Origin: a virus | Strand: one strand, 5' to 3' | DNA: 22,332 nt | Virus record (IMG/VR): IMGVR_UViG_3300009104_000131 | Coordinates: 1 to 22,332 of that record | Shown here: positions 1 through 16,589 of the stretch, piece after piece | Position numbering within the stretch: the stretch's first letter is position 1 | How the letters are laid out: each line of letters starts with the position of its first letter | Notes under the pieces: generated by a model | The model's input: the letters and a program-made list of their open reading frames with translations, nothing else | Databases searched by the model: none | Told to the model about the DNA's origin: nothing | Made by a program: the position numbers and the translations under genes

Positions 1-153
1 TAGTTCAAAGTATTCATCTTTAATATCTTCAGGAATATCTTTTTTCCAATCAATCCATCCATCATCTGTTCCATATTCTTTCATTATTTCAACAAATCTA
101 GGTGGATATTTTTTATTAATTTGTGGATTTAATCCGTAAATATCAAAACCCAT
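1..153 (-). CDS. Phage protein beginning MGFDIYGLNP (partial, C-terminus outside window)
   Basis: The 51 visible N-terminal residues begin MGFDIYGLNP and continue with KYPPRF and an acidic, Trp-containing stretch. I recognise this N-terminal signature as a widespread small phage protein of unknown function, usually found among early or replication genes. It starts at the ATG at 153, with a clear SD (GGAAGG) 8-13 bases upstream on the minus strand. It lies downstream of the three RNA elements in the 154-459 gap, which would form its 5' leader if the leftward transcript runs through. The reading frame is open to the window edge, so its length and C-terminus are unknown. No enzymatic motif is visible. 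Confidence 0.8.
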   Translation of the reverse strand, partial: MGFDIYGLNPQINKKYPPRFVEIMKEYGTDDGWIDWKKDIPEDIKDEYFEL

Positions 154-180
154 AATTTTTCCTTCCTTTTTTAGTTAAAT

Positions 181-260
181 GAGGCTAGAGCCATAACATA
201 AACTGTTAAACAATCTCTACATCTACATTGCTTTTCAGCTTACTGGCAATACCTAGCCTC
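181..260 (-). ncRNA. Structured RNA element E1 (closed-stem)
   Basis: An 80-base segment is closed by an 8-bp perfect inverted repeat (GAGGCTAG at 181-188, CTAGCCTC at 253-260). Position 189 with 252 adds a ninth pair that is G-U on the minus strand but A-C on the plus strand. Inside, on the minus strand, are two 5-bp hairpins: ATTGC/GCAAT and TAACA/TGTTA, the latter with a 5-base loop. The outline is cloverleaf-like, but there is no T-loop motif or CCA-type end, so it is not a recognisable tRNA. The role is unknown. The strand is inferred from the wobble pair and the flanking genes. Confidence 0.5.
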
Positions 261-269
261 ACAAGTTTT

Positions 270-345
270 AGGGAGACGCATGATAGTGCTCGTATGATTA
301 TCTATCGTTTTGCATTGTACAATGACTTAGAGCAAGCGCCTCCCT
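270..345 (-). ncRNA. Structured RNA element E2 (closed-stem)
   Basis: A 76-base segment is closed by 10 consecutive pairs (270-279 with 336-345). Pair 276/339 is G-U if the minus strand is transcribed and an A-C mismatch on the plus strand, so leftward RNA is favoured. Inside are a palindrome CATTGTACAATG able to form a 4-bp hairpin and a 5-bp hairpin GATAG/CTATC; TGCTC/GAGCA is a competing pairing. On the plus strand the stem is followed by AATTTTTT, which superficially resembles a terminator, but the loop is 56 bases long. The function is unknown. Confidence 0.5.
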
Positions 346-353
346 AATTTTTT

Positions 354-453
354 GGGGAACACCTCACTAAAGAGCCAACCTTAGTTCACTTGTTCAACTA
401 TTCTAACACATACTTTAATAAGAATGCGCCAGCCTAGTCTTTAGATATTCCCC
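354..453 (-). ncRNA. Structured RNA element E3 (long bulged helix)
   Basis: A 100-base segment begins just after the stop of the ssDNA-binding-like gene. Outer helix: 445-453 pairs with 354-362 over 9 bp, including two pairs (447/360 and 445/362) that are U-G on the minus strand and A-C mismatches on the plus strand. After a 4-base bulge (363-366) the helix continues for 7 perfect bp (438-444 with 367-373), giving 16 bp in total. Inside are two 5-bp hairpins, ATTCT/AGAAT and TAGTT/AACTA. It could be an RNase III-type processing site or a stand-alone RNA. Neither is proven. Confidence 0.5.
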
Positions 454-468
454 ATTTTATTAAAATGG
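452..468. repeat. Inverted repeat over the stop codon of the ssDNA-binding-like gene
   Basis: CCATTTTA and TAAAATGG form an 8-bp inverted repeat with one central base, spanning the stop codon at 460-462 and overlapping the 5' end of element E3. It could form a small AT-rich hairpin. No U-run follows on the minus strand, so it is not a classical terminator. Confidence 0.4.
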
Positions 469-1113
469 TACGTCTTCTGCTAACTCTTCCGCTGATAGTT
501 CAGTTGCTTTGCCAAACCTATCAGTGTTCCAAGGCTTAACAGTAAACACTTTCCAAGCCTTACGCTTTTCTTGTTCACCTTCTGGCAAGTCTCTGGTTTC
601 GTGAGTAACATATTCTTGTTGTTGAATACGAATAGTACATGGTTTTCCAACCACATCTTCTTCTTCAATCAATCCAAGTTTCTTATGTTTCACTCCATCT
701 ACCTCAACATCGCCTAAGTCTATTCCAAGAGATGATAGTAATCCGAAGTATCTTCCATTTTTAGAAGAACCTTCTTTTTCTGTGAAACAGAAATATCCAT
801 TATCCCTGAAGACTCTTCCTTTTAAGAATCCAGAATCAGTCTTTTGAGGATTTCCGTCAGTGTCTTTTATAACAATTTGATGACCATTATCATCTACTGC
901 TATATTGTATCCATCCATCTCGTAGACAGTTTGCTTTAGACTGGCAACTTCCTCTGAAACTGTATATTTAAGATTAAACACAGTCGCTTTACCAGCTTTA
1001 GTGTTTAAATCTCTTGATTCAAATGAAGTAATGTGGGCTGGATACTCACCTTGAAGTATTGGTTTAAATCCAGTGTTGTCTTTTTCATTGAAAGTAACAT
1101 CTATTGATTTCAT
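460..1113 (-). CDS. Phage single-stranded DNA-binding-like protein
   Basis: This 217-aa protein probably coats ssDNA during replication or recombination. The N-terminal half has the layout I associate with a family of phage proteins close to DUF669 (an early LQGEYPAHI segment followed by alternating beta strands). The middle carries the GRYFGLLSSLGI segment. The last residues, SAEELAEDVPF, match the acidic tail with a terminal DxPF found in SSB proteins, whose tail recruits partner proteins. No OB-fold can be proved by eye. It is the last gene before the structured 154-459 gap and shares the operon with an annealing protein and a nuclease. It starts at the ATG at 1113, 8 bases after the stop of the preceding gene; the SD is moderate (GGAGG lies inside the end of that gene). 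Function: moderately sure. Confidence 0.72.
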   Translation of the reverse strand: MKSIDVTFNEKDNTGFKPILQGEYPAHITSFESRDLNTKAGKATVFNLKYTVSEEVASLKQTVYEMDGYNIAVDDNGHQIVIKDTDGNPQKTDSGFLKGRVFRDNGYFCFTEKEGSSKNGRYFGLLSSLGIDLGDVEVDGVKHKKLGLIEEEDVVGKPCTIRIQQQEYVTHETRDLPEGEQEKRKAWKVFTVKPWNTDRFGKATELSAEELAEDVPF

Positions 1114-5933: not shown

Positions 5934-5994
5934 TAGGGTATATGACTAGCAGTGTCTAGCTAAGTTTCTATGTCTTACTAGCCATTATACCCTA
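5934..5994 (-). ncRNA. Structured element E5 (closed-stem)
   Basis: A 61-base segment is closed by a 9-bp perfect inverted repeat (TAGGGTATA at 5934-5942, TATACCCTA at 5986-5994). Inside is a second stem, TAGTAAG with CTTAGCTA carrying one bulged base. On the minus strand the closing stem contains TATAAT (5989 to 5984), so a promoter -10 box is an alternative reading, although no -35 box is visible. The pairs show no wobble bias, so the strand is taken from the flanking genes. Confidence 0.4.
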
Positions 5995-8593: not shown

Positions 8594-8802
8594 TGCAAGG
8601 CAATGTATATAAAATAAGAAAACCTATAAATCAAGATATGTCACTAGGAGAATCAATAAAGAAAATGAAATCTTTAGCAAATGGTATAGATGAATATCAT
8701 ATTATAAACCCAACATCTAATGTAGTATTTAGATTAACGGATATAGTAAAGATAATAAAAAATATAGAGACACCTGAACTTATTGGAGAAAGTACAGATT
8801 AG
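8593..8802 (+). CDS. Hypothetical phage protein between metallophosphoesterase and TerL, 69 aa
   Basis: Unrecognised. The sequence MQGNVYKIRKPINQDMSLGESIKKMKSLANGIDEYHIINP has a short beta-helix-beta feel. It ends in a helix (DIVKIIKNI). The TAATG overlap with the preceding gene and the overlap of its C-terminus with the TerL start put it in a tightly coupled packaging operon. No motif suggests a function. Confidence 0.65.
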   Translation: MQGNVYKIRKPINQDMSLGESIKKMKSLANGIDEYHIINPTSNVVFRLTDIVKIIKNIETPELIGESTD

Positions 8803-10375
8803 TTTTAATATCAATACACAAGATGTATCTAAAGCTGAAGAAGTATTACAATTAGCTCGTAATGACCTTATCGCTTTTGGAAAACTTTTTCTTCCAGATG
8901 ATTTTATGCGTAGTGAGACACCCCCATTTCATTATGAGATGGCTGATGCAATAGATGATAAAAACTGTAAACAGTTAGCTATCATTCTCCCAAGAGGACA
9001 TGGGAAAACGGTATTGACAAAATGTTCAATTATTAAAGACTTTTGTTTTACGCCAAAAGATGATATGCACTTCTATGCATGGGTGTCCGCTACCCAGAAA
9101 TTGTCAACTGGAAATATGGATTATATTAAATACCATTTTGAATTTAATGAAAAGATAAAATATTATTTTGGAAACTTAAAGGGAAAGAAATGGACTGAGG
9201 AAGACGTTGAATTAAAAAATGGGTGTAAACTTATATCTAAAAGTAATGTGGCTGGTATTCGTGGTGGAGCAAAGTTGCATAAAAGATATGACCTTATTAT
9301 ATTAGACGACTTTGAGCATGAACAAAATACAATTACAGCCGAAGCAAGAGCTAAAAACTCAAATTTGGTCACTGCTGTTGTTTATCCCGCGCTTGAGCCT
9401 CATACTGGTCGGCTGCGTGTTAATGGTACTCCCGTTCACTATGATTCCTTTATTAATAATCTTATCATTAATCACGCAAGGAGTCAAAAAAATCAAAAAG
9501 ATTTTGCATGGAAAGTAATTACTTATAAAGCAATCCTACCTGATGGTTCTCCTTTATGGGACAGTTGGTTTCCTGCTAAAAAGCTACAAGAGAAAAAGAA
9601 ATTTTATCAAGATTCAGGCACCCCATCCAAGTTTTATCAAGAATATATGATGGAAGTCCAATCGGAAGAAGACTCCGTTTGGAAACGTAGCGATATAAGA
9701 TACTGGAGTGGTCATTATGAGTATGACGAAGATAATGACGTTAATTATCTCTATGTCAATGGAGATAAGATTCCAGTTAATACTTTTTTAGGATGTGACC
9801 CAGCTACAGATATTGATACTAAAGAATCTGACTATTCTGTTATAATGGTTATAGCAGTAGACATGGAGAGTAATGTTTATGTAATCCATTATGAAAGACA
9901 TAAGTCTATTCCTACTATTGGGTCTAAGTCTTTAACAGACGGAGAGATTATTGGCAAAAAAGGAGTAGTTGATTATATAATGGAACTTCACCAACAATAC
10001 CATTGTTTATCAAGTACAGTTGAAGATGTAGCTATGAATAGGTCAATTTTTCAAGCATTAAACGAAGAAAGAAGGAGATTAAATAAGTTTGGTATATCTG
10101 TGATACCTCAAAAGCCAGGAGGTCAACAGAAAAGAAATAGAATTTATAGCGGATTAACTGGAAGATTTAGTATGGGATTGGTTCATTTAAAGGAAAATAT
10201 GTTTGATTTAATTAACGAAATCCTTACTTTTGGACCTAGAATGGCGCATGATGACACAATTGAGACACTTTATTATGCAACTTTGCATTCATTCCCGCCT
10301 AAATATGCGCGGGACAAAGACAAGAAAAGGTGGTTTAAACCAAAAAGGAAAGCTAAAAGCTGGGTAGTAGCATGA
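8783..10375 (+). CDS. Terminase large subunit (TerL), ATPase-nuclease
   Basis: This 530-aa packaging motor has a complete ATPase: Walker A PRGHGKT (residues 70-76), Walker B LIILDDFE (171-178) and coupling motif NGTP (214-217). The C-terminal RNase H-like nuclease has acidic residues D339 (LGCDPATD), E414 (TVEDVA) and D490/D491 (MAHDDTIE). Domain order and length are normal for TerL. The reported start is TTG at 8783, without a well-spaced SD. An ATT at 8798 sits 7 bases after GGAGAA and overlaps the upstream TAG as ATTAG, so the true start may be a rare ATT (5 residues shorter). It overlaps the next gene by ATGA. Confidence 0.93.
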   Translation: MEKVQISFNINTQDVSKAEEVLQLARNDLIAFGKLFLPDDFMRSETPPFHYEMADAIDDKNCKQLAIILPRGHGKTVLTKCSIIKDFCFTPKDDMHFYAWVSATQKLSTGNMDYIKYHFEFNEKIKYYFGNLKGKKWTEEDVELKNGCKLISKSNVAGIRGGAKLHKRYDLIILDDFEHEQNTITAEARAKNSNLVTAVVYPALEPHTGRLRVNGTPVHYDSFINNLIINHARSQKNQKDFAWKVITYKAILPDGSPLWDSWFPAKKLQEKKKFYQDSGTPSKFYQEYMMEVQSEEDSVWKRSDIRYWSGHYEYDEDNDVNYLYVNGDKIPVNTFLGCDPATDIDTKESDYSVIMVIAVDMESNVYVIHYERHKSIPTIGSKSLTDGEIIGKKGVVDYIMELHQQYHCLSSTVEDVAMNRSIFQALNEERRRLNKFGISVIPQKPGGQQKRNRIYSGLTGRFSMGLVHLKENMFDLINEILTFGPRMAHDDTIETLYYATLHSFPPKYARDKDKKRWFKPKRKAKSWVVA

Positions 10376-10986
10376 TTGATGAGAGAAAACAAGAAGAACA
10401 AGTACAAGATAGTACTGGAGGAATATGGAGCAAGATGCTAGAATGGACTGGATGGGCAGATGCTCTTCAAGATGAAAAAGAAAGAATGCAGATGAAGATG
10501 AGGCTTGACGACGCTAAAGAGTGGATAAATATGCCATACAAGCAAAGAATGGAAATGGTATATGAAAAAGGTGGAAAGCATGGGGAGAATCTTAGTTCAA
10601 GTGAAGTTGTAGACCCAAATTCTTTAAGATGGTTTATATACAATCTTGATGGTAATGATAAAAAAGAGGTTAGGATTTTACAAGAAAAATTAAATGAATT
10701 CTTTGATGAGCATGGGTGGAAATTAGAATCAATTCCCACTGATGGAGATTTGGGAAACAGAACTATTAGCCGTATGCAATATTTTATGAACCAATATGAT
10801 AAGCATTACAATACTGAGATGGACACTAAGGAATCTATTAGAGCAGCAGAAGAATTAATCTTCTATCGCAATGACCCATTTACAGAAGAATCTGACACGA
10901 TGAGAATAAAAGAAAATTTGCAAAACATGAGACCTAATAAAGAGGTAGAAGATATTTTAAAAAATTTAAACATGATAAAACAATAA
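10372..10986 (+). CDS. Structural or lysis-associated protein with peptidoglycan-binding-like segment, 204 aa
   Basis: Residues about 98-141 resemble a PG_binding_1 motif: VRILQEKLNEFF, then DGDLGNRTISRMQYFMNQY (LQxxL...DGxxGxxTxxAxxxF). The flanks are helical and charged: an N-terminal amphipathic segment with WSKMLEWTGWADAL, and a C-terminal helical tail. It could be a virion protein that touches the cell wall, working with the lysozyme-like protein encoded two genes later, or a head-associated protein in which the fold is reused. The ATG overlaps the TerL stop (ATGA), and its own stop overlaps the following ATG as TAATG. Confidence 0.65.
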   Translation: MIDERKQEEQVQDSTGGIWSKMLEWTGWADALQDEKERMQMKMRLDDAKEWINMPYKQRMEMVYEKGGKHGENLSSSEVVDPNSLRWFIYNLDGNDKKEVRILQEKLNEFFDEHGWKLESIPTDGDLGNRTISRMQYFMNQYDKHYNTEMDTKESIRAAEELIFYRNDPFTEESDTMRIKENLQNMRPNKEVEDILKNLNMIKQ

Positions 10987-11183
10987 TGAGTGATATAAAA
11001 ACTGACTTTACACACAAACCTGATGACGCTTCTCTAGAGAACAGAGGGGAAATGGGCTCACCTTCTTTTGGAGGTGGAAAAACTAAATCTGTATGGCAAG
11101 GATTTGTTGATGCATCAGGATTTAAAAAACGCCATGCAAAAATGATGGTGAAACGAGACAGGAGAAAAAATGGTAAGTATTAA
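10986..11183 (+). CDS. Hypothetical phage protein, 65 aa
   Basis: Unrecognised. The N-terminus is polar and disordered-looking (DFTHKPDDASLENRGEMGSPSFGGGK), and the C-terminus is basic (FKKRHAKMMVKRDRRKNGKY). The TAATG start overlap and the overlap with the following gene keep it in the operon. The design (flexible acidic arm plus basic tail) is common in small head-associated proteins, but that is only a resemblance. Confidence 0.62.
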   Translation: MSDIKTDFTHKPDDASLENRGEMGSPSFGGGKTKSVWQGFVDASGFKKRHAKMMVKRDRRKNGKY

Positions 11184-11658
11184 GCAAATGAAGTCTCTTA
11201 TATCAAGTGTATGCGAAGATATGGGAAAGAAATTTTCATCTGAAGATGCTGTTAATCTTGTATTGGCTACTGGAATTGTTGAGAGCAGATATGAATATGT
11301 CAGACAAATGGGAGACGGTCCCGCGAGAAGTTTCTGGCAAGTAGAAGCCGCGACCGCTGTAGATAACCTTGCTCACTATCTTAAGCATCGCCCTGATTTA
11401 ATGAAAAAGTGTGCAAAAGCTAGTATGGTAGATGTTAAGCATTGGCAGAGCTTTGAAGAAGACTTGTGGGAAGAAATCCTTGAAAAAAATATAGCCGCTG
11501 GAATTGTTCATTGTAGATTGAAATATTGGAGAGTTCCAAAGAAAATGCCAAATAGTGTTGAGGGAAAAGCAGATTACTGGAAGAAATACTACAACACAGA
11601 GGGAGGAGCAGGCGACCCTGAACATTTTGTAGAAGTTTATCAAAAGTATTTACGATAA
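11170..11658 (+). CDS. Lysozyme/transglycosylase-like phage protein, 162 aa
   Basis: I recognise the layout of a family found next to portal genes in many phages: an early ATGIVESRY with a candidate catalytic Glu38, then QMGDGPARSFWQVEAAT, and a C-terminal AAGIVHCRLKYWRVPKKMP followed by YWKKYYNT. The spacing of the Glu, the GPA(R/L)SFWQ(V/M)E element and the helices fits a goose-type lysozyme or lytic transglycosylase fold. It may cut peptidoglycan locally at DNA entry, as a virion enzyme. Catalysis cannot be proven by eye. The start ATG has SD AGGAGA nearby, and its stop overlaps the next ATG as TAATG. Confidence 0.68.
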   Translation: MVSIKQMKSLISSVCEDMGKKFSSEDAVNLVLATGIVESRYEYVRQMGDGPARSFWQVEAATAVDNLAHYLKHRPDLMKKCAKASMVDVKHWQSFEEDLWEEILEKNIAAGIVHCRLKYWRVPKKMPNSVEGKADYWKKYYNTEGGAGDPEHFVEVYQKYLR

Positions 11659-11774
11659 TGCCTAACAAAGCAGCTAAGCAGAGAAAGAGAACGAGGCGTA
11701 AGCTGAATATGGAAAATAAAAAAATTAAAAGATTAAAAAGGGAAAAAAGAAAATATGGCAAGGCGAACCAATAA
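11658..11774 (+). CDS. Very small basic protein, 38 aa
   Basis: This short frame reads MPNKAAKQRKRTRRKLNMEN, then KKIKRLKREKRK and a short tail. Eighteen of 38 residues are Lys or Arg, so it must bind nucleic acid or an acidic surface if made. It starts with a TAATG overlap on the lysozyme-like gene and ends 20 bases inside the portal gene, so it is translationally coupled on both sides. Small basic proteins of this type commonly lie just before phage portal genes. The coupling and conserved style support reality, but length makes it uncertain. Confidence 0.6.
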   Translation: MPNKAAKQRKRTRRKLNMENKKIKRLKREKRKYGKANQ

Positions 11775-14043
11775 AAAAATAGCAGAAGACTATTTTCAGT
11801 TGTTTAAGAATGCCAATGGTAATTGGCGTAAAAAATGGCGTTCAGTATCTCAGAAGTCAGAGGATTTTTATTTAAATGACCAATTGAGTGGTGAAGAGGT
11901 AAAAGCATTACAAGAGTCTGGAATGCCAACTTTCGTTATAAATAGAATAACTCCAGTTATTGAAATGATGAAGTACTTCGTTACAGCTAATAGTCCAAGA
12001 TGGCAAGCTGTTGGAAGCGATGGTAGTGATTCTAACATAGCAGCTATTCATGCAGATTTAGCAGATTATTGTTGGTACATATCAAATGGAAGAAGTGTTT
12101 TTTCTCATGTCATTCAAGATGCATTGGTAAAGGGTGTTGGATATTTCTTAATTGATATAGACCCTGACGCAGATAGGGGAATGGGTGAGGTTATGTTTAA
12201 GAGACTTGACCCTTATGATGTATACATAGACCCAATGAGTAGAGATTTTCTATTTAGAGACGCAGGATATATTCAGATTAGAAAAATACTTCCTAAAAAA
12301 CAATTAAAACAATTATTCCCAGACCAAGTTAGAAAGATTACTAAGGCTACAGGAAGCCCAGATATAAGTACAGATTACTACTCCCAAAGAAATAGTGCAT
12401 TTTCTGATAACGTAATTCCAGAAGACATAGGAGACGAATCATATGAAATGGACGGTTCTAAGGATGGTCTTTTAGATTATTATGAGACGTATGAAAAGAT
12501 AAAAATTGCTTTTATTAATTTAAATTATAAAGTTCCACCTGATGAAGAAATGATGGTTCAAATACATCAAGAAGTTCAAAAGCAGATGGAAATGTTCATA
12601 AAAGAATTAGAAGTTAGCTACAAAGAACAAATGATGGCTCTAGATGCTCAAGTAGAATCTGGTGAAATGTTAGAAGAAAGAGCAGCCCTTGAAAAAGAAA
12701 AACTTCAAATGCAAAATCAAGAAGCTATTGAGCAGAAGCAACAAGAATTAACCTCTATTCTTCAACAAGAAAAAACTAAAGTTGCAAATGTGGTTGTTAC
12801 AGAAGAAGAATACAAAGCTATGTTAGAAGCCCCTGAGTTTAAAAAACAAGTGATTGATTCTGTAAAGTTTTACGATACTAGAGTAAAATTAACTTGTACT
12901 TTGGGCAACGATACAGTTTTATATGATTATATATTACCAACAAGTGAGTATCCAATTGTTCCGATTTGCTATCAATGGGTTGGAACTCCTTACCCTGTAA
13001 GCGCAGTAAGCCCTTTGGTTGGTAAGCAACAAGAAATTAATAAAGCTCATCAATTAATGATACACAATGCCAACCTAGCCTCTAATTTAAGATGGATGTA
13101 TCAAGAAGGCTCTGTGCCTGAAGAAGAGTGGGAACAGTATTCATCTGCTCCTGGAGCATTGTTAAAATACAGACAAGGATTTGAAGCTCCTTCTCCTGTG
13201 CAACCAGCCCCATTAAATAATGCATTTTTTGGAATTGTTACAGAGGGAAAACAAGACTTAGAATATATATCTGGAGTGTACTCTTCAATGCAGGGCGATA
13301 CTGGAGCTCAACATGAAACTTACAGAGGAATGCTAGCCGTAGATGAGCATGGCACAAGAAGAATAAAAGCGTGGATGCAGACGACAGTAGAGCCCTCACT
13401 TGAGCATCTTGGAAAGGTTTTTAAAGAGATTGCTCAACAAACATATAAGGCGAATAAGGTATTCAGAATTGTACAGCCAGATACAAATGAATCTAAAAGA
13501 GTAGAAATTAATGTTCCTGTCTATAGTGACTTTGGAAATGCTATTGAAAAATTCAATGACTATGCATCTGCTAGATTTGATGTTAGAATCGTTGGAGGCT
13601 CTACATTACCAGTCAATAGATGGGCATTAATGGAAGAATATTTTAGATGGTATCAATCTGGACTAATTGATGACATAGCAATGTTGTCTGAAACAGATAT
13701 TAGAAATAAAGAACAAATTATTAAACGTAAATCAGTGTACTCTCAAATGAGGTCACAAATAGATGCACTTGAGGAGGAAATGAAAGATATGCAAGATGAA
13801 AACGAAACTCTAGAGAGACAAATAGTACAAGCTGGCATCAAAGACCAAATACGAGAAGCTGATAAAGAAATCTATAAAGATAAAGTAGACTCTAAATCAA
13901 TGCAAAGAGATTTAAGAAAGACTATGGAAAAAGAAATCGCTTTTGCTAAAAAAGACTTAGAATCTAAGAAGAAGACTGCTGAAAGAGAGTATAGAGCTGG
14001 ATTACGCAGTGCAAAAAATAATATTGTCAATAAAGATGATTAG
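11755..14043 (+). CDS. Portal protein (P22-like)
   Basis: This 762-aa protein forms the dodecameric ring at the DNA-entry vertex. It shows the P22-type layout: an N-terminal helical arm (NWRKKWRSVSQKSEDFYLNDQ), the conserved PTFVINRITPVIEMMKYF, FKRLDPYDVYIDPMS, a crown/stem region with the PICYQWVGTPYPVSAVSPLVG element, and DEHGTRRIKAWMQTTVEPSL. Two long coiled coils stand out: residues about 263-342 (Glu/Gln/Lys-rich, inserted mid-protein) and about 655-760 at the C-terminus, probably a barrel or extended crown. The ATG at 11755 follows AGGGA at about 15 bases. Downstream come scaffold and capsid, as expected. Confidence 0.9.
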   Translation: MARRTNKKIAEDYFQLFKNANGNWRKKWRSVSQKSEDFYLNDQLSGEEVKALQESGMPTFVINRITPVIEMMKYFVTANSPRWQAVGSDGSDSNIAAIHADLADYCWYISNGRSVFSHVIQDALVKGVGYFLIDIDPDADRGMGEVMFKRLDPYDVYIDPMSRDFLFRDAGYIQIRKILPKKQLKQLFPDQVRKITKATGSPDISTDYYSQRNSAFSDNVIPEDIGDESYEMDGSKDGLLDYYETYEKIKIAFINLNYKVPPDEEMMVQIHQEVQKQMEMFIKELEVSYKEQMMALDAQVESGEMLEERAALEKEKLQMQNQEAIEQKQQELTSILQQEKTKVANVVVTEEEYKAMLEAPEFKKQVIDSVKFYDTRVKLTCTLGNDTVLYDYILPTSEYPIVPICYQWVGTPYPVSAVSPLVGKQQEINKAHQLMIHNANLASNLRWMYQEGSVPEEEWEQYSSAPGALLKYRQGFEAPSPVQPAPLNNAFFGIVTEGKQDLEYISGVYSSMQGDTGAQHETYRGMLAVDEHGTRRIKAWMQTTVEPSLEHLGKVFKEIAQQTYKANKVFRIVQPDTNESKRVEINVPVYSDFGNAIEKFNDYASARFDVRIVGGSTLPVNRWALMEEYFRWYQSGLIDDIAMLSETDIRNKEQIIKRKSVYSQMRSQIDALEEEMKDMQDENETLERQIVQAGIKDQIREADKEIYKDKVDSKSMQRDLRKTMEKEIAFAKKDLESKKKTAEREYRAGLRSAKNNIVNKDD

Positions 14044-14087
14044 CAATTGACAATTAACAACAAATTACATTAATTTGGAGGACTATT

Positions 14088-14984
14088 ATGGCTAAAGAAC
14101 AAACAGATAACCTTTCTCAAGACGAAGCTTTGCAACAAGCTTCTAATAATGTCTTTGAAGAAAGCTCTGATGCTTTTGCCCCCGCAGGTGAAGATGACTT
14201 TTTTGAACAATTGGACTCTTCTGTTAATCCTGCCCAACTAGACATGGCTGAGGAAGCGAAACCTTTGCCATCCCAGACAACTCCTGTTGCTGAGAAAGCA
14301 GTGGACTCTGGTGAAGAAAAACACGACTATGAGAAAAGGTATACAGATTCAAGCAAGGAAGCTAGACGGCTTAACTCCCGTTTAGGTGAATTAGAACCTT
14401 ATTTACCTCTTCTTGACGCTATGAGAGAAGACCCTAATTTAATTACTCATGTGAAAAATTATTTTGAGGGTGGCGGTCAAGCACCAGAATCTATGACTGA
14501 AGAGTTAGGTTTAGATGAAGATTTCATTTTTGATGGCGATGAAGCAATTAAAGACCCAAAAAGTAGTTCTGCAAAAGTACTTAACAAGACTATTGATGGA
14601 ATGATACAAAAACGACTTGGGCAGTTTCAAGGACAACAGGCTGAAGAAAATCGTAAATTAAAAGAAGCTAGTGCATTTAGACAGAAGCATAATCTTACTG
14701 ATGAAGATTATGAAGAGTTTATGAATTATGCAAAAGAGCATAGGCTTAGTTTAGACGATATACTCTACTTAAAAAATAGAGAGAATGTTCAACAAAATGT
14801 TGCGAACTCCACAAAAAAAGAACTTCTTGAACAAATGAAAAATGTAAGACAAAGACCCAGAAGCCTAGCTACTGCGGGAGTTGTCTCAACATCCGACACT
14901 GAAAGTCAAGAAGATGCTGTGTTTGACAAACTCATGAATGTAGATGTTAACACAGAAGAAACTGATTTATTTTCAGTCTCTTAG
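14088..14984 (+). CDS. Scaffold protein
   Basis: This 298-aa protein is placed between portal and major capsid, the usual scaffold position. It is very acidic at the N-terminus (DDFFEQLDSSVNPA), Pro-rich in the middle, and highly helical after residue 80 (HDYEKRYTDSSKEARRLNSR, then EEFMNYAKEHRLSLDDILYL), ending in a disordered tail with ETDLFSVS. No protease triad is visible, so proteolytic maturation is not indicated here. A strong SD GGAGG lies 7-11 bases before the ATG. Identification rests on order and composition. Confidence 0.8.
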   Translation: MAKEQTDNLSQDEALQQASNNVFEESSDAFAPAGEDDFFEQLDSSVNPAQLDMAEEAKPLPSQTTPVAEKAVDSGEEKHDYEKRYTDSSKEARRLNSRLGELEPYLPLLDAMREDPNLITHVKNYFEGGGQAPESMTEELGLDEDFIFDGDEAIKDPKSSSAKVLNKTIDGMIQKRLGQFQGQQAEENRKLKEASAFRQKHNLTDEDYEEFMNYAKEHRLSLDDILYLKNRENVQQNVANSTKKELLEQMKNVRQRPRSLATAGVVSTSDTESQEDAVFDKLMNVDVNTEETDLFSVS

Positions 14985-15006
14985 TTAACATATTTAGTTA
15001 ACACAG
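14946..15006. repeat. Three GTTAAC-centred short repeats across the scaffold-capsid junction
   Basis: GTTAACACAG occurs at 14946-14955 and 14997-15006, and TTAGTTAACA at 14981-14990 and 14994-15003. All three sites contain the palindrome GTTAAC within 61 bases that include the scaffold stop and the capsid leader. Possible binding site or chance in AT-rich DNA. Confidence 0.35.
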
Positions 15007-15026
15007 TAATATAAGGAGGGATAATC

Positions 15027-16589
15027 ATGGCTGATTATTCAACCGTACCCCCAGGTGGAGTTCAAGTAAGCGATTATAATACCGCTGATGTTGACCGAGC
15101 TGGCGGTACTCCCCTAAATACAGGTTTACTAAGGCGTAAATATAACTTCGGAGACCGTGTTTCTGAACTGGCGATTGACCAAACTCCTTTCTTTAGGATT
15201 TTGTCTAAAATGTCAAAACAACCAACCGATGACCCTCAGTTTAAATATACCGAGCGTAGACCTTCTTTTCATAAACGATATGCATACGTAACTGGATTTG
15301 CCGCTGACGCTACAGCTACCGCTGGATTGTCAATTACTGCAACTTCTGCTATTGGAAACCTGAACACAGTTGGAAACCAAGTATGTGTTCGCCTAGGCAC
15401 TGACTATAAATCCGCAGGGAATATAGGAAATGTCATTGGTGGTGGGTCAGTAAGTATTGGCGCTTCAGGAACTGAACCATTGTTCTTTATGAAAGACCAA
15501 TTAATCAAAATACCTCTAAAAGCAACAGCTACGGCAGTTGGCACTAGCGATTACGCAGTTTGTCAGGTTAAAGAGCTTGTTTCTGGTAGTGGTTCAAACG
15601 CTAACCAAGTTGTAGCTAGAGTAAGAGTTGTAAAACCATCTGCAGCTACAGGACTTAAATTAGCTTCTTACACAGACAACACAACTCTAATTGTAGCACA
15701 TGGCTCATCTCAAGCTAAAATGGCTGACAGTGCAACTACTACATTAGAGCAAGCTCGTACTTATGTTGTTGGTACTGCTTTCCCAGAAGGTTCTAAACTA
15801 ACAGATACCTCTTGGAATGACCAACCATTTAGTACTGGAAATGGACAAACTCAGATTTTCCGTACTGAAGCTTACATGACCAACACAGCTCGTGCAACTG
15901 TCACTAAATACGAACCAAATGAATGGGCACGTATTTGGAGAGAGAAACTAATTGAGCATAAATGGGATATTGAATATTCTATTTTGTTTGGTTCTCAACA
16001 GTCTGGTGTACATGGCTCTGGTTCTGAATCAGTCCAATACACTCAAGGTGCTGTAAGTTACATCCTAGACAATAGTAATATTTTCTCATGGAGCACTTCA
16101 CACTCAGCTGATTCATTCTTAGATGATATGTCAAGATTCATGGACCCGCGTTATCAAAGTTCTAAACCAACAATCTTCTTCTGTTCTACAGACGTATACA
16201 ACTGGTTGCATAAACTAGGTGGATATTTCTCACAGAACGTACAAGCTGTTGGAACTCTTGGTGACTCTTTAGGTCGTGCAGACTTCGCTGTAACAGGCAA
16301 GAAGAATGCATACGGACTTGGTGTTCTACAAATTTCAACTCCATACGGAGATATGAATGTAGTTCGCAATATCCAACTTGACGGAACTCATGTTAAGATG
16401 ATGGCTGTTAATATGTCCCATGCGAAAATAAGACCTCTAGTGGGTAATGGCGTTAACCGAGACACATCAGTTTACGTGGGTGTTCAATCACTTGAGAATA
16501 CTGGTACAGACAGAAGGGTTGACTTAATCCTTACTGAATTAGGTACTGAATTCTCAATGCCTGAAACGCACGCAATCTGGAAAGTCTAA
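15027..16589 (+). CDS. Major capsid protein
   Basis: This 520-aa protein follows the scaffold and has the best SD in the arm (AAGGAGGG, about 7 bases before the ATG), as expected for the most abundant virion protein. The N-terminal region (NTGLLRRKYNFGDRVSELAI; PFFRILSKMSKQPTDDPQF) and the C-terminal MMAVNMSHAKIRPLVGNGVN then LILTELGTEFSMPETHAIW are the conserved parts. Between residues about 90 and 260 lies a long Ala/Thr/Gly-rich, beta-type insertion. Its HK97 fold is inferred from position and style, not visible motifs. Codon choice appears less AT-extreme than neighbouring genes, with more CCA, CGT and GTT, as expected for high expression. Confidence 0.85.
   Translation: MADYSTVPPGGVQVSDYNTADVDRAGGTPLNTGLLRRKYNFGDRVSELAIDQTPFFRILSKMSKQPTDDPQFKYTERRPSFHKRYAYVTGFAADATATAGLSITATSAIGNLNTVGNQVCVRLGTDYKSAGNIGNVIGGGSVSIGASGTEPLFFMKDQLIKIPLKATATAVGTSDYAVCQVKELVSGSGSNANQVVARVRVVKPSAATGLKLASYTDNTTLIVAHGSSQAKMADSATTTLEQARTYVVGTAFPEGSKLTDTSWNDQPFSTGNGQTQIFRTEAYMTNTARATVTKYEPNEWARIWREKLIEHKWDIEYSILFGSQQSGVHGSGSESVQYTQGAVSYILDNSNIFSWSTSHSADSFLDDMSRFMDPRYQSSKPTIFFCSTDVYNWLHKLGGYFSQNVQAVGTLGDSLGRADFAVTGKKNAYGLGVLQISTPYGDMNVVRNIQLDGTHVKMMAVNMSHAKIRPLVGNGVNRDTSVYVGVQSLENTGTDRRVDLILTELGTEFSMPETHAIWKV

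What the first reader, a model, noticed from the sequence alone, without database searches (positions are those of the whole stretch)
154..459. Three consecutive closed-stem RNA elements fill the gap between the ssDNA-binding-like gene and the next gene
E1 (181-260), E2 (270-345) and E3 (354-453) follow one another with 8- to 9-base A-rich linkers on the minus strand. Each is closed by a 9- to 16-bp helix and holds two internal hairpins. Four closing-stem pairs (189/252, 276/339, 360/447, 362/445) are G-U on the minus strand and A-C on the plus strand, and none is the reverse. That bias indicates selection on leftward RNA. They are tRNA-sized but have no tRNA hallmarks. They may be a new family of phage structured RNAs or processing units.
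Basis: partly seen in the sequence, partly recalled or inferred. Interest (0 to 1): 0.65.

Follow-up and report, generated by a model that had tools for sequence, protein, structure and literature searches.

The report
Structured RNAs behind phage SSB gene
[quoted passage not shown] one belongs to a previously uncatalogued RNA family kept by natural selection at the same spot in many divergent phages, so it very probably does a job as RNA, although that job is not yet known.

Summary
The 306-nt gap holds three closed-stem elements that fold far better than shuffles on the minus strand (z -6.2, -4.1, -5.9; whole gap -6.8, plus strand -1.9). E1 (179-262) is a new RNA family: 23 divergent homologues, 13 of 21 pairs with compensatory changes (81 such cells against 22.6 in shuffles), and an almost invariant core of two bulges around a GCCA/UGGC helix. 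None of the loci scanned shows an Rfam match to the elements. E1 is always co-directional with its genes, and 17 of 23 copies lie just behind the same SSB-like gene. That gene is followed by a noncoding gap of at least 100 nt in 77 of 77 loci (median gap before it 15), filled by exchangeable folded modules: E1, E3-type, a likely pseudoknot (E4), others and once a tRNA-Tyr. E3 (353-454) keeps its pairing in one close relative and shares a covarying UUGGC-loop hairpin with others. E2 (268-347) has no known relative. Best explanation: the leftward early transcript carries discrete RNA modules that protect and tailor the ssb mRNA end and are released as stable RNAs, E1 being recognised through its bulges. 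Structure, strand, selection and location are shown; processing and function are inferred.

The parts
179..262 (-). E1 RNA element: P1 closing stem 252-262/179-189 (last pair the conserved G-U 252/189), 5' bulge UAUU 248-251, P2 GCCA 244-247 / UGGC 190-193, 3' bulge GUUA 194-197, P3 236-243/198-205, variable apical hairpin
   Evidence: Fold z -6.19; covariation over 23 sequences; model R1 79.9 bits
268..347 (-). E2 RNA element: 12-bp closing stem (336-347/268-279), weakly folded interior; orphan, absent from the closest relative L001
   Evidence: Fold z -4.06; no relative by blastn among held loci; missing in L001
353..454 (-). E3 RNA element: 12-bp closing stem (443-454/353-364) and two internal hairpins; the 3' hairpin carries a UUGGC loop
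   Evidence: Fold z -5.88; L001 homologue keeps 5 of 6 changed pairs; UUGGC-loop hairpin covaries with L002 and L202
460..1113 (-). SSB-like gene (217 aa, ends ..EDVPF), immediately upstream of the RNA array on the same strand
   Evidence: PHROG 378 single strand DNA binding protein E 1.2e-4; AlphaFold2 model pLDDT 88.8 with only weak Foldseek matches, several of them to SSB/OB-fold chains
1..153 (-). 5' part of the next gene (MGFDIYGLNP...), free Shine-Dalgarno-like GGAAGG just 3' of E1
   Evidence: Sequence; homologous to the 211-aa L001 protein

Best explanation
The gap is an RNA locus, not a spacer. The leftward recombination operon (Sak-type annealing protein, SSB, exonuclease) is transcribed through it, and the transcript folds into discrete closed-stem modules separated by short A/U-rich single-stranded linkers. 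Shown: E1 is a conserved, co-directional RNA structure with an almost invariant double-bulge core; E3 is a second RNA type with a conserved UUGGC hairpin; the ssb 3' gap of this phage group always holds such modules, and they can be exchanged, nested or replaced (once by a tRNA-Tyr). Inferred: a host endonuclease cuts in the A/U-rich linkers, which leaves the heavily used ssb mRNA with a protected 3' end and frees tRNA-sized stable RNAs. E1 is then recognised by a protein or other ligand through its UAUU and GYUA bulges and acts as a stand-alone RNA. The recognising factor is unknown.
For: E1 covariation: 95.4% of cells paired, 13 of 21 pairs with both sides changed, 81 such cells against 22.6 in shuffles; the slid versions pair 33-44%. 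The core is nearly invariant while the apical region runs from a few nucleotides to a whole nested element (for L147). All mapped E1s lie on the same strand as their neighbours, at varying positions in the arrays and next to varying downstream genes. 17 of 23 lie directly behind ssb. ssb-to-next gap at least 100 nt in 77 of 77 loci, previous-gene-to-ssb gap at least 100 nt in 1 of 68; gap folding z median -3.4 sense, -1.9 antisense, -1.8 for the end of the ssb coding region. Motif GTTGGC 14 times against 1.4 expected, 0 on the antisense strand. In L139 a tRNA-Tyr gene follows E1 directly, as one more module. [quoted passage not shown]
Against: No RNA data of any kind; processing, release and stability are inferred. 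Six of 23 E1s are not behind ssb, so the tie to ssb is not absolute. Almost universal presence of some module behind ssb would also fit a purely cis role. E2 has no comparative support. Part of the invariance of the E1 core reflects how the first members were found (pattern search), although nine of the 23 were found by the model or a looser pattern and keep most of it.
Confidence: 0.45

Rival explanations
1. Purely cis role: the modules are 3'-UTR barriers or insulators that stabilise ssb mRNA against 3' exonucleases or uncouple ssb from the next gene; any stable fold will do, and nothing acts in trans.
For: 77 of 77 ssb genes are followed by a folded gap whatever the module type; module types are interchangeable; L002 has a single module and L001 lacks E2; T4 gene 32 precedent (PMC3014915).
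Against: Does not explain the almost invariant E1 bulge core over divergent phages, E1 copies away from ssb, or the sense-only UUGGC motif.
Confidence: 0.3
2. Cis-regulatory aptamer or antitermination element: E1 senses a ligand or binds RNA polymerase or a phage protein (for example SSB itself) and controls the genes downstream.
For: Conserved asymmetric internal-loop core with a dispensable apical loop is typical of aptamers and protein-binding sites; in window and L001 E1 lies just 5' of a ribosome-binding site; gp32 of T4 binds a pseudoknot in its own mRNA (PMC3014915).
Against: Downstream genes differ between phages and E1 is often followed by other modules rather than by the gene; no terminator-like site in the gap; the ribosome-binding site is not sequestered.
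Confidence: 0.13
3. E1 (or E4) is a new self-cleaving or processing ribozyme that separates the modules.
For: Compact conserved core, units separated by short linkers, neighbour of a tRNA.
Against: No match to any ribozyme family in Rfam; no conserved nucleotides outside the closing stem where a flank would be cut.
Confidence: 0.06
4. Selfish or mobile inserts, or chance folds without function.
For: Whole-element gain and loss (E2 absent in L001) and nesting of one element in another (L147).
Against: Nearly always one E1 copy per contig, fixed strand and location, compensatory changes. E2 alone could still be of this kind.
Confidence: 0.06

Closest known systems
T4 gene 32 (SSB) mRNA and its processing (PMC3014915)
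   Same: [quoted passage not shown] structured RNA tied to SSB
   Different: T4 uses a leader pseudoknot bound by gp32; here a row of conserved RNA modules lies downstream of ssb, with no sequence relation shown
Phage tRNA and stable-RNA clusters (tRNA clusters; T4 RNA C and RNA D, from memory)
   Same: Row of tRNA-sized folded RNAs in an early phage operon; in L139 a tRNA-Tyr is one of the modules
   Different: E1-E3 have no tRNA features (ARAGORN, Rfam negative); E1 has its own conserved bulge core
Pseudo-ToxI antitoxin-mimic RNA of phage PhiTE (PMC3475682)
   Same: Noncoding phage RNA units, variable in number, that can act in trans against a host defence
   Different: PhiTE repeats are similar to the repeats of a host antitoxin; E1 is no tandem repeat and no host counterpart was found
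Candidate structured RNAs from comparative genomics (for example PMC2864571)
   Same: Covariation-supported RNA families of unknown function found in metagenomes
   Different: None of the Rfam families matches E1, E3 or E4; these belong to a fixed phage locus of exchangeable modules

Membership tests
Any Rfam 15 family | Covariance-model score at or above the gathering score | tested here: not met
   No match over the elements in the window (E up to 5) or in about 45 related loci; only tRNAs found
tRNA / tmRNA | Cloverleaf with anticodon and T-loop | tested here: not met
   ARAGORN finds none in the window
E1 RNA family (defined here) | P1, bulge UAUU, P2 GCCA/UGGC, bulge GYUA, P3, with compensatory changes | tested here: met
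   Window E1 79.9 bits, E 8.6e-17 over 796 kb; pair counts on 23 sequences
E3-type (UUGGC hairpin) RNA | Closing stem plus a hairpin with loop UUGGC(N) closed by GG, with compensatory changes | tested here: met
   4 sequences, 100% paired, 3 of 5 pairs with both sides changed; motif enrichment. A full-length alignment failed, so homology outside the hairpin is shown only for L001
E1 family, tested for E2 | Match to model R1 | tested here: not met
   R1 finds only 176-265 in the window
Intrinsic terminator | G+C-rich hairpin followed by a run of U | tested here: not met
   0 found in 1-1500
Riboswitch / self-cleaving ribozyme | Ligand-dependent control / in vitro self-cleavage | not testable with these tools
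   Needs RNA biochemistry
Mobile repeat (MITE-like) | Several copies per genome | tested here: not met
   One E1 copy per contig, except two in L016; window gap single in its own record

The most novel reading that the evidence does not exclude
The ssb 3' gap of this large group of uncultured phages is a dedicated noncoding-RNA island: a slot in the early recombination operon where exchangeable trans-acting RNAs (E1, the UUGGC type, the E4 pseudoknot, tRNA-Tyr) are loaded and expressed early, for example as decoys or mimics that counter host defences, in the way a phage tRNA-Tyr counters a tRNA-degrading retron (PMC11555353) and pseudo-ToxI counters ToxIN (PMC3475682).
Probability: 0.15. Interest if true: 0.9.

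Novelty: new variant of a known kind. Interest (0 to 1): 0.68.

Why it matters
Noncoding RNAs of phages are little explored outside tRNAs and a few model phages. Here an uncatalogued RNA family with strong covariation, and a locus that holds folded RNA in every relative examined, give a concrete, testable entry point: why does a phage SSB gene of this group always carry structured RNA behind it, and what reads the E1 bulge core? If the modules act in trans they may form an RNA counterpart of anti-defence gene islands.

Tried and rejected
(1) Pattern hits of the E1 core in L109/L114 and L116 (a bacterial contig) and in L138, L143-L146 lack the closing stem and look like coding sequence: taken as chance. 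(2) BLAST of the gap and of one E1 against cultured phages: nothing meaningful. (3) Full-length MAFFT alignment of E3-type elements failed, so only the shared hairpin was tested. (4) Search for relatives of E2: none. (5) A pattern built on the E3 hairpin finds only L001's contig. (6) Promoter scan: 7 sites against 4.8 expected, not informative. (7) The next-gene-to-following-gene gaps are inflated by missed small genes and were not used. (8) The last pairs of E1 P3 (columns 35-36 of A5) are weak and not claimed.

Full report
Check of the observation. The gap between the SSB-like gene (460-1113, minus strand) and the next minus-strand gene (start codon 151-153) folds on the minus strand into three successive closed elements, E3 (454-353), E2 (347-268) and E1 (262-179), with 5-base linkers. 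Energies beat dinucleotide shuffles: E1 z -6.19, E2 -4.06, E3 -5.88, whole gap -6.77; the plus strand gives -3.5, -3.0, -1.95 and -1.92. One detail is wrong: E1 is a single irregular hairpin, and E2's interior is poorly defined. No tRNA or Rfam family matches the elements.

Relatives. The nearest relative (L001, SSB 95% identical) keeps E3 and E1 but lacks E2; its E1 is shorter at the tip, and its upper stem has changed on both sides (AAGCUG/CAGUUU to AGAUUG/CAGUCU). L002 (SSB 76%) has one element with the same UUGGC-loop hairpin as E3. A nucleotide search of related phage contigs found E1 again in divergent phages, and pattern scans of IMG/VR added more. The one hit in bacterial and archaeal genomes lacks the closing stem and is chance.

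E1 is a conserved RNA. On 14 sequences, 96.3% of cells pair, 10 of 21 pairs change on both sides, 45 such cells against 12.6 in shuffles, and slid structures fall to 31-46%; RNAalifold returns the same structure unaided. A covariance model (R1) then found further members, some of them in ssb loci collected without any E1 pattern. On 23 sequences 95.4% of cells pair and 13 of 21 pairs change on both sides, 81 cells against 22.6; that alignment was fitted to the model, so one search is the cleaner test. The core is nearly invariant: UAGG-UAUU-GCCA on the 5' side and UGNUA-UGGC-UCUA on the 3' side, two bulges on opposite strands around a 4-bp helix. Between them the apical part is free to vary, up to a whole nested element in L147. 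G-U cells outnumber A-C cells 55 to 4 in the sense strand, 40 of the 55 at two conserved positions, which fits function as leftward RNA.

E3 and E2. Between window and L001, six E3 pairs differ and five stay paired. The 3' hairpin with loop UUGGC is shared with L002 and L202 and covaries (4 sequences, all cells paired, 3 of 5 pairs changed on both sides). GTTGGC occurs 14 times in 45 non-redundant ssb gaps against 1.4 in shuffles and never on the antisense strand. E2 has no relative in anything searched, so its reality as a functional RNA rests on folding alone.

The locus. The gene upstream is SSB-like: PHROG 378 (E 1.2e-4 for the window protein; 4 of 17 family members match), an acidic tip ending in PF, a confident model with only weak matches to solved structures, several of them SSB/OB-fold chains. 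Eighty loci encoding its relatives were collected. All 77 usable ones have a noncoding gap of at least 100 nt after ssb (median 149), against 1 of 68 before it (median 15); gap folding z is -3.4 in median on the sense strand, -1.9 antisense and -1.8 in the end of the ssb coding region. The gaps are filled by recurring module types: E1; the UUGGC type; E4, for which a pseudoknot is suggested by crossing helices with compensatory changes; and several others. In L139 the module after E1 is a tRNA-Tyr gene. 17 of the 23 aligned E1s are behind ssb; the other six (L102, L107, L141, L142 and two in L016) are elsewhere, all co-directional with neighbouring genes.

How it probably works. Shown: selected RNA structure, strand, a conserved locus and modularity. 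Inferred: the leftward transcript is cut in the A/U-rich linkers, the closed stems protect the ssb mRNA end, and compact RNAs are released, E1 being recognised through its bulges. T4 gene 32 shows that a phage SSB mRNA can be unusually stable and RNase E-processed, including at its coding end (PMC3014915). A purely cis role is the strongest rival. A fixed leader riboswitch is disfavoured because downstream genes vary and other modules often follow E1. Mobile repeats are disfavoured by the copy number of one.

Novelty. None of the about 45 loci scanned gives an Rfam match to the elements, at permissive thresholds in the window and five relatives. The literature searches found no description, but they cover only the open library. 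The terminase is at best about 24% identical to cultured phages in the rows shown, and the capsid protein has no match, so the phage belongs to an uncultured group.

Noticed in passing
L152:2115-2252, L190:2112-2241 and about 20 more ssb gaps (alignment A6): E4, a widespread module not present in the window: GAGAYGAGGGCGG..CUCRUCUC..CCGCCCUC, apparently a pseudoknot with crossing helices (95% of cells paired, 21 double-sided cells against 7.4 in shuffles), possibly with a third stem further 5' (GCACUAAGG/CCUUAGUGC in L152).
   Followed up: partly
L139:1837-1920 (-): A tRNA-Tyr gene (ARAGORN) sits directly after E1 and before a UUGGC-type element, as one module of the array.
   Followed up: partly
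L147 minus strand, 5' of 2040 (same as L167:2283-2418): A second element (E6, ..CCUAYUAAUACAUCUAGCGAAC..) is nested inside the apical loop of E1; E6 stands alone upstream in L100 and appears in L148, where E1 keeps only its 5' half.
   Followed up: partly
L100:6067-6095, L101:7515-7543, L147:2040-2068, L148:9569-9597 (-): E5, a strongly conserved closed-stem element (CUCGUAAAGCAUAGCAAAGUACACGCUGUGGACUGCCCU) next to E1.
   Followed up: no
L153, L159, L161, L169, L170, L184 (ssb gaps); L155, L175, L139: Two further module types behind ssb: CUGAGGAGCUGACCGAAGUAUG..GGCUCCUCAG, and GGUGUUGAAGCG..CCAGACGUGGUUG..GCAGAGUUCGCC.
   Followed up: no
window 5934-5994 (-): A further strong hairpin (z -5.4) in the gap between the divergent operons.
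   Followed up: no
window 8783-16589: Structural genes (PHROG 38 terminase, P22-like portal, SU10-type capsid) with no close cultured relative: about 24% identity at best for the terminase in the rows shown, no capsid match.
   Followed up: partly
L205:2876-2977: A tRNA (Rfam RF00005) some 760 nt downstream of ssb in another relative.
   Followed up: no
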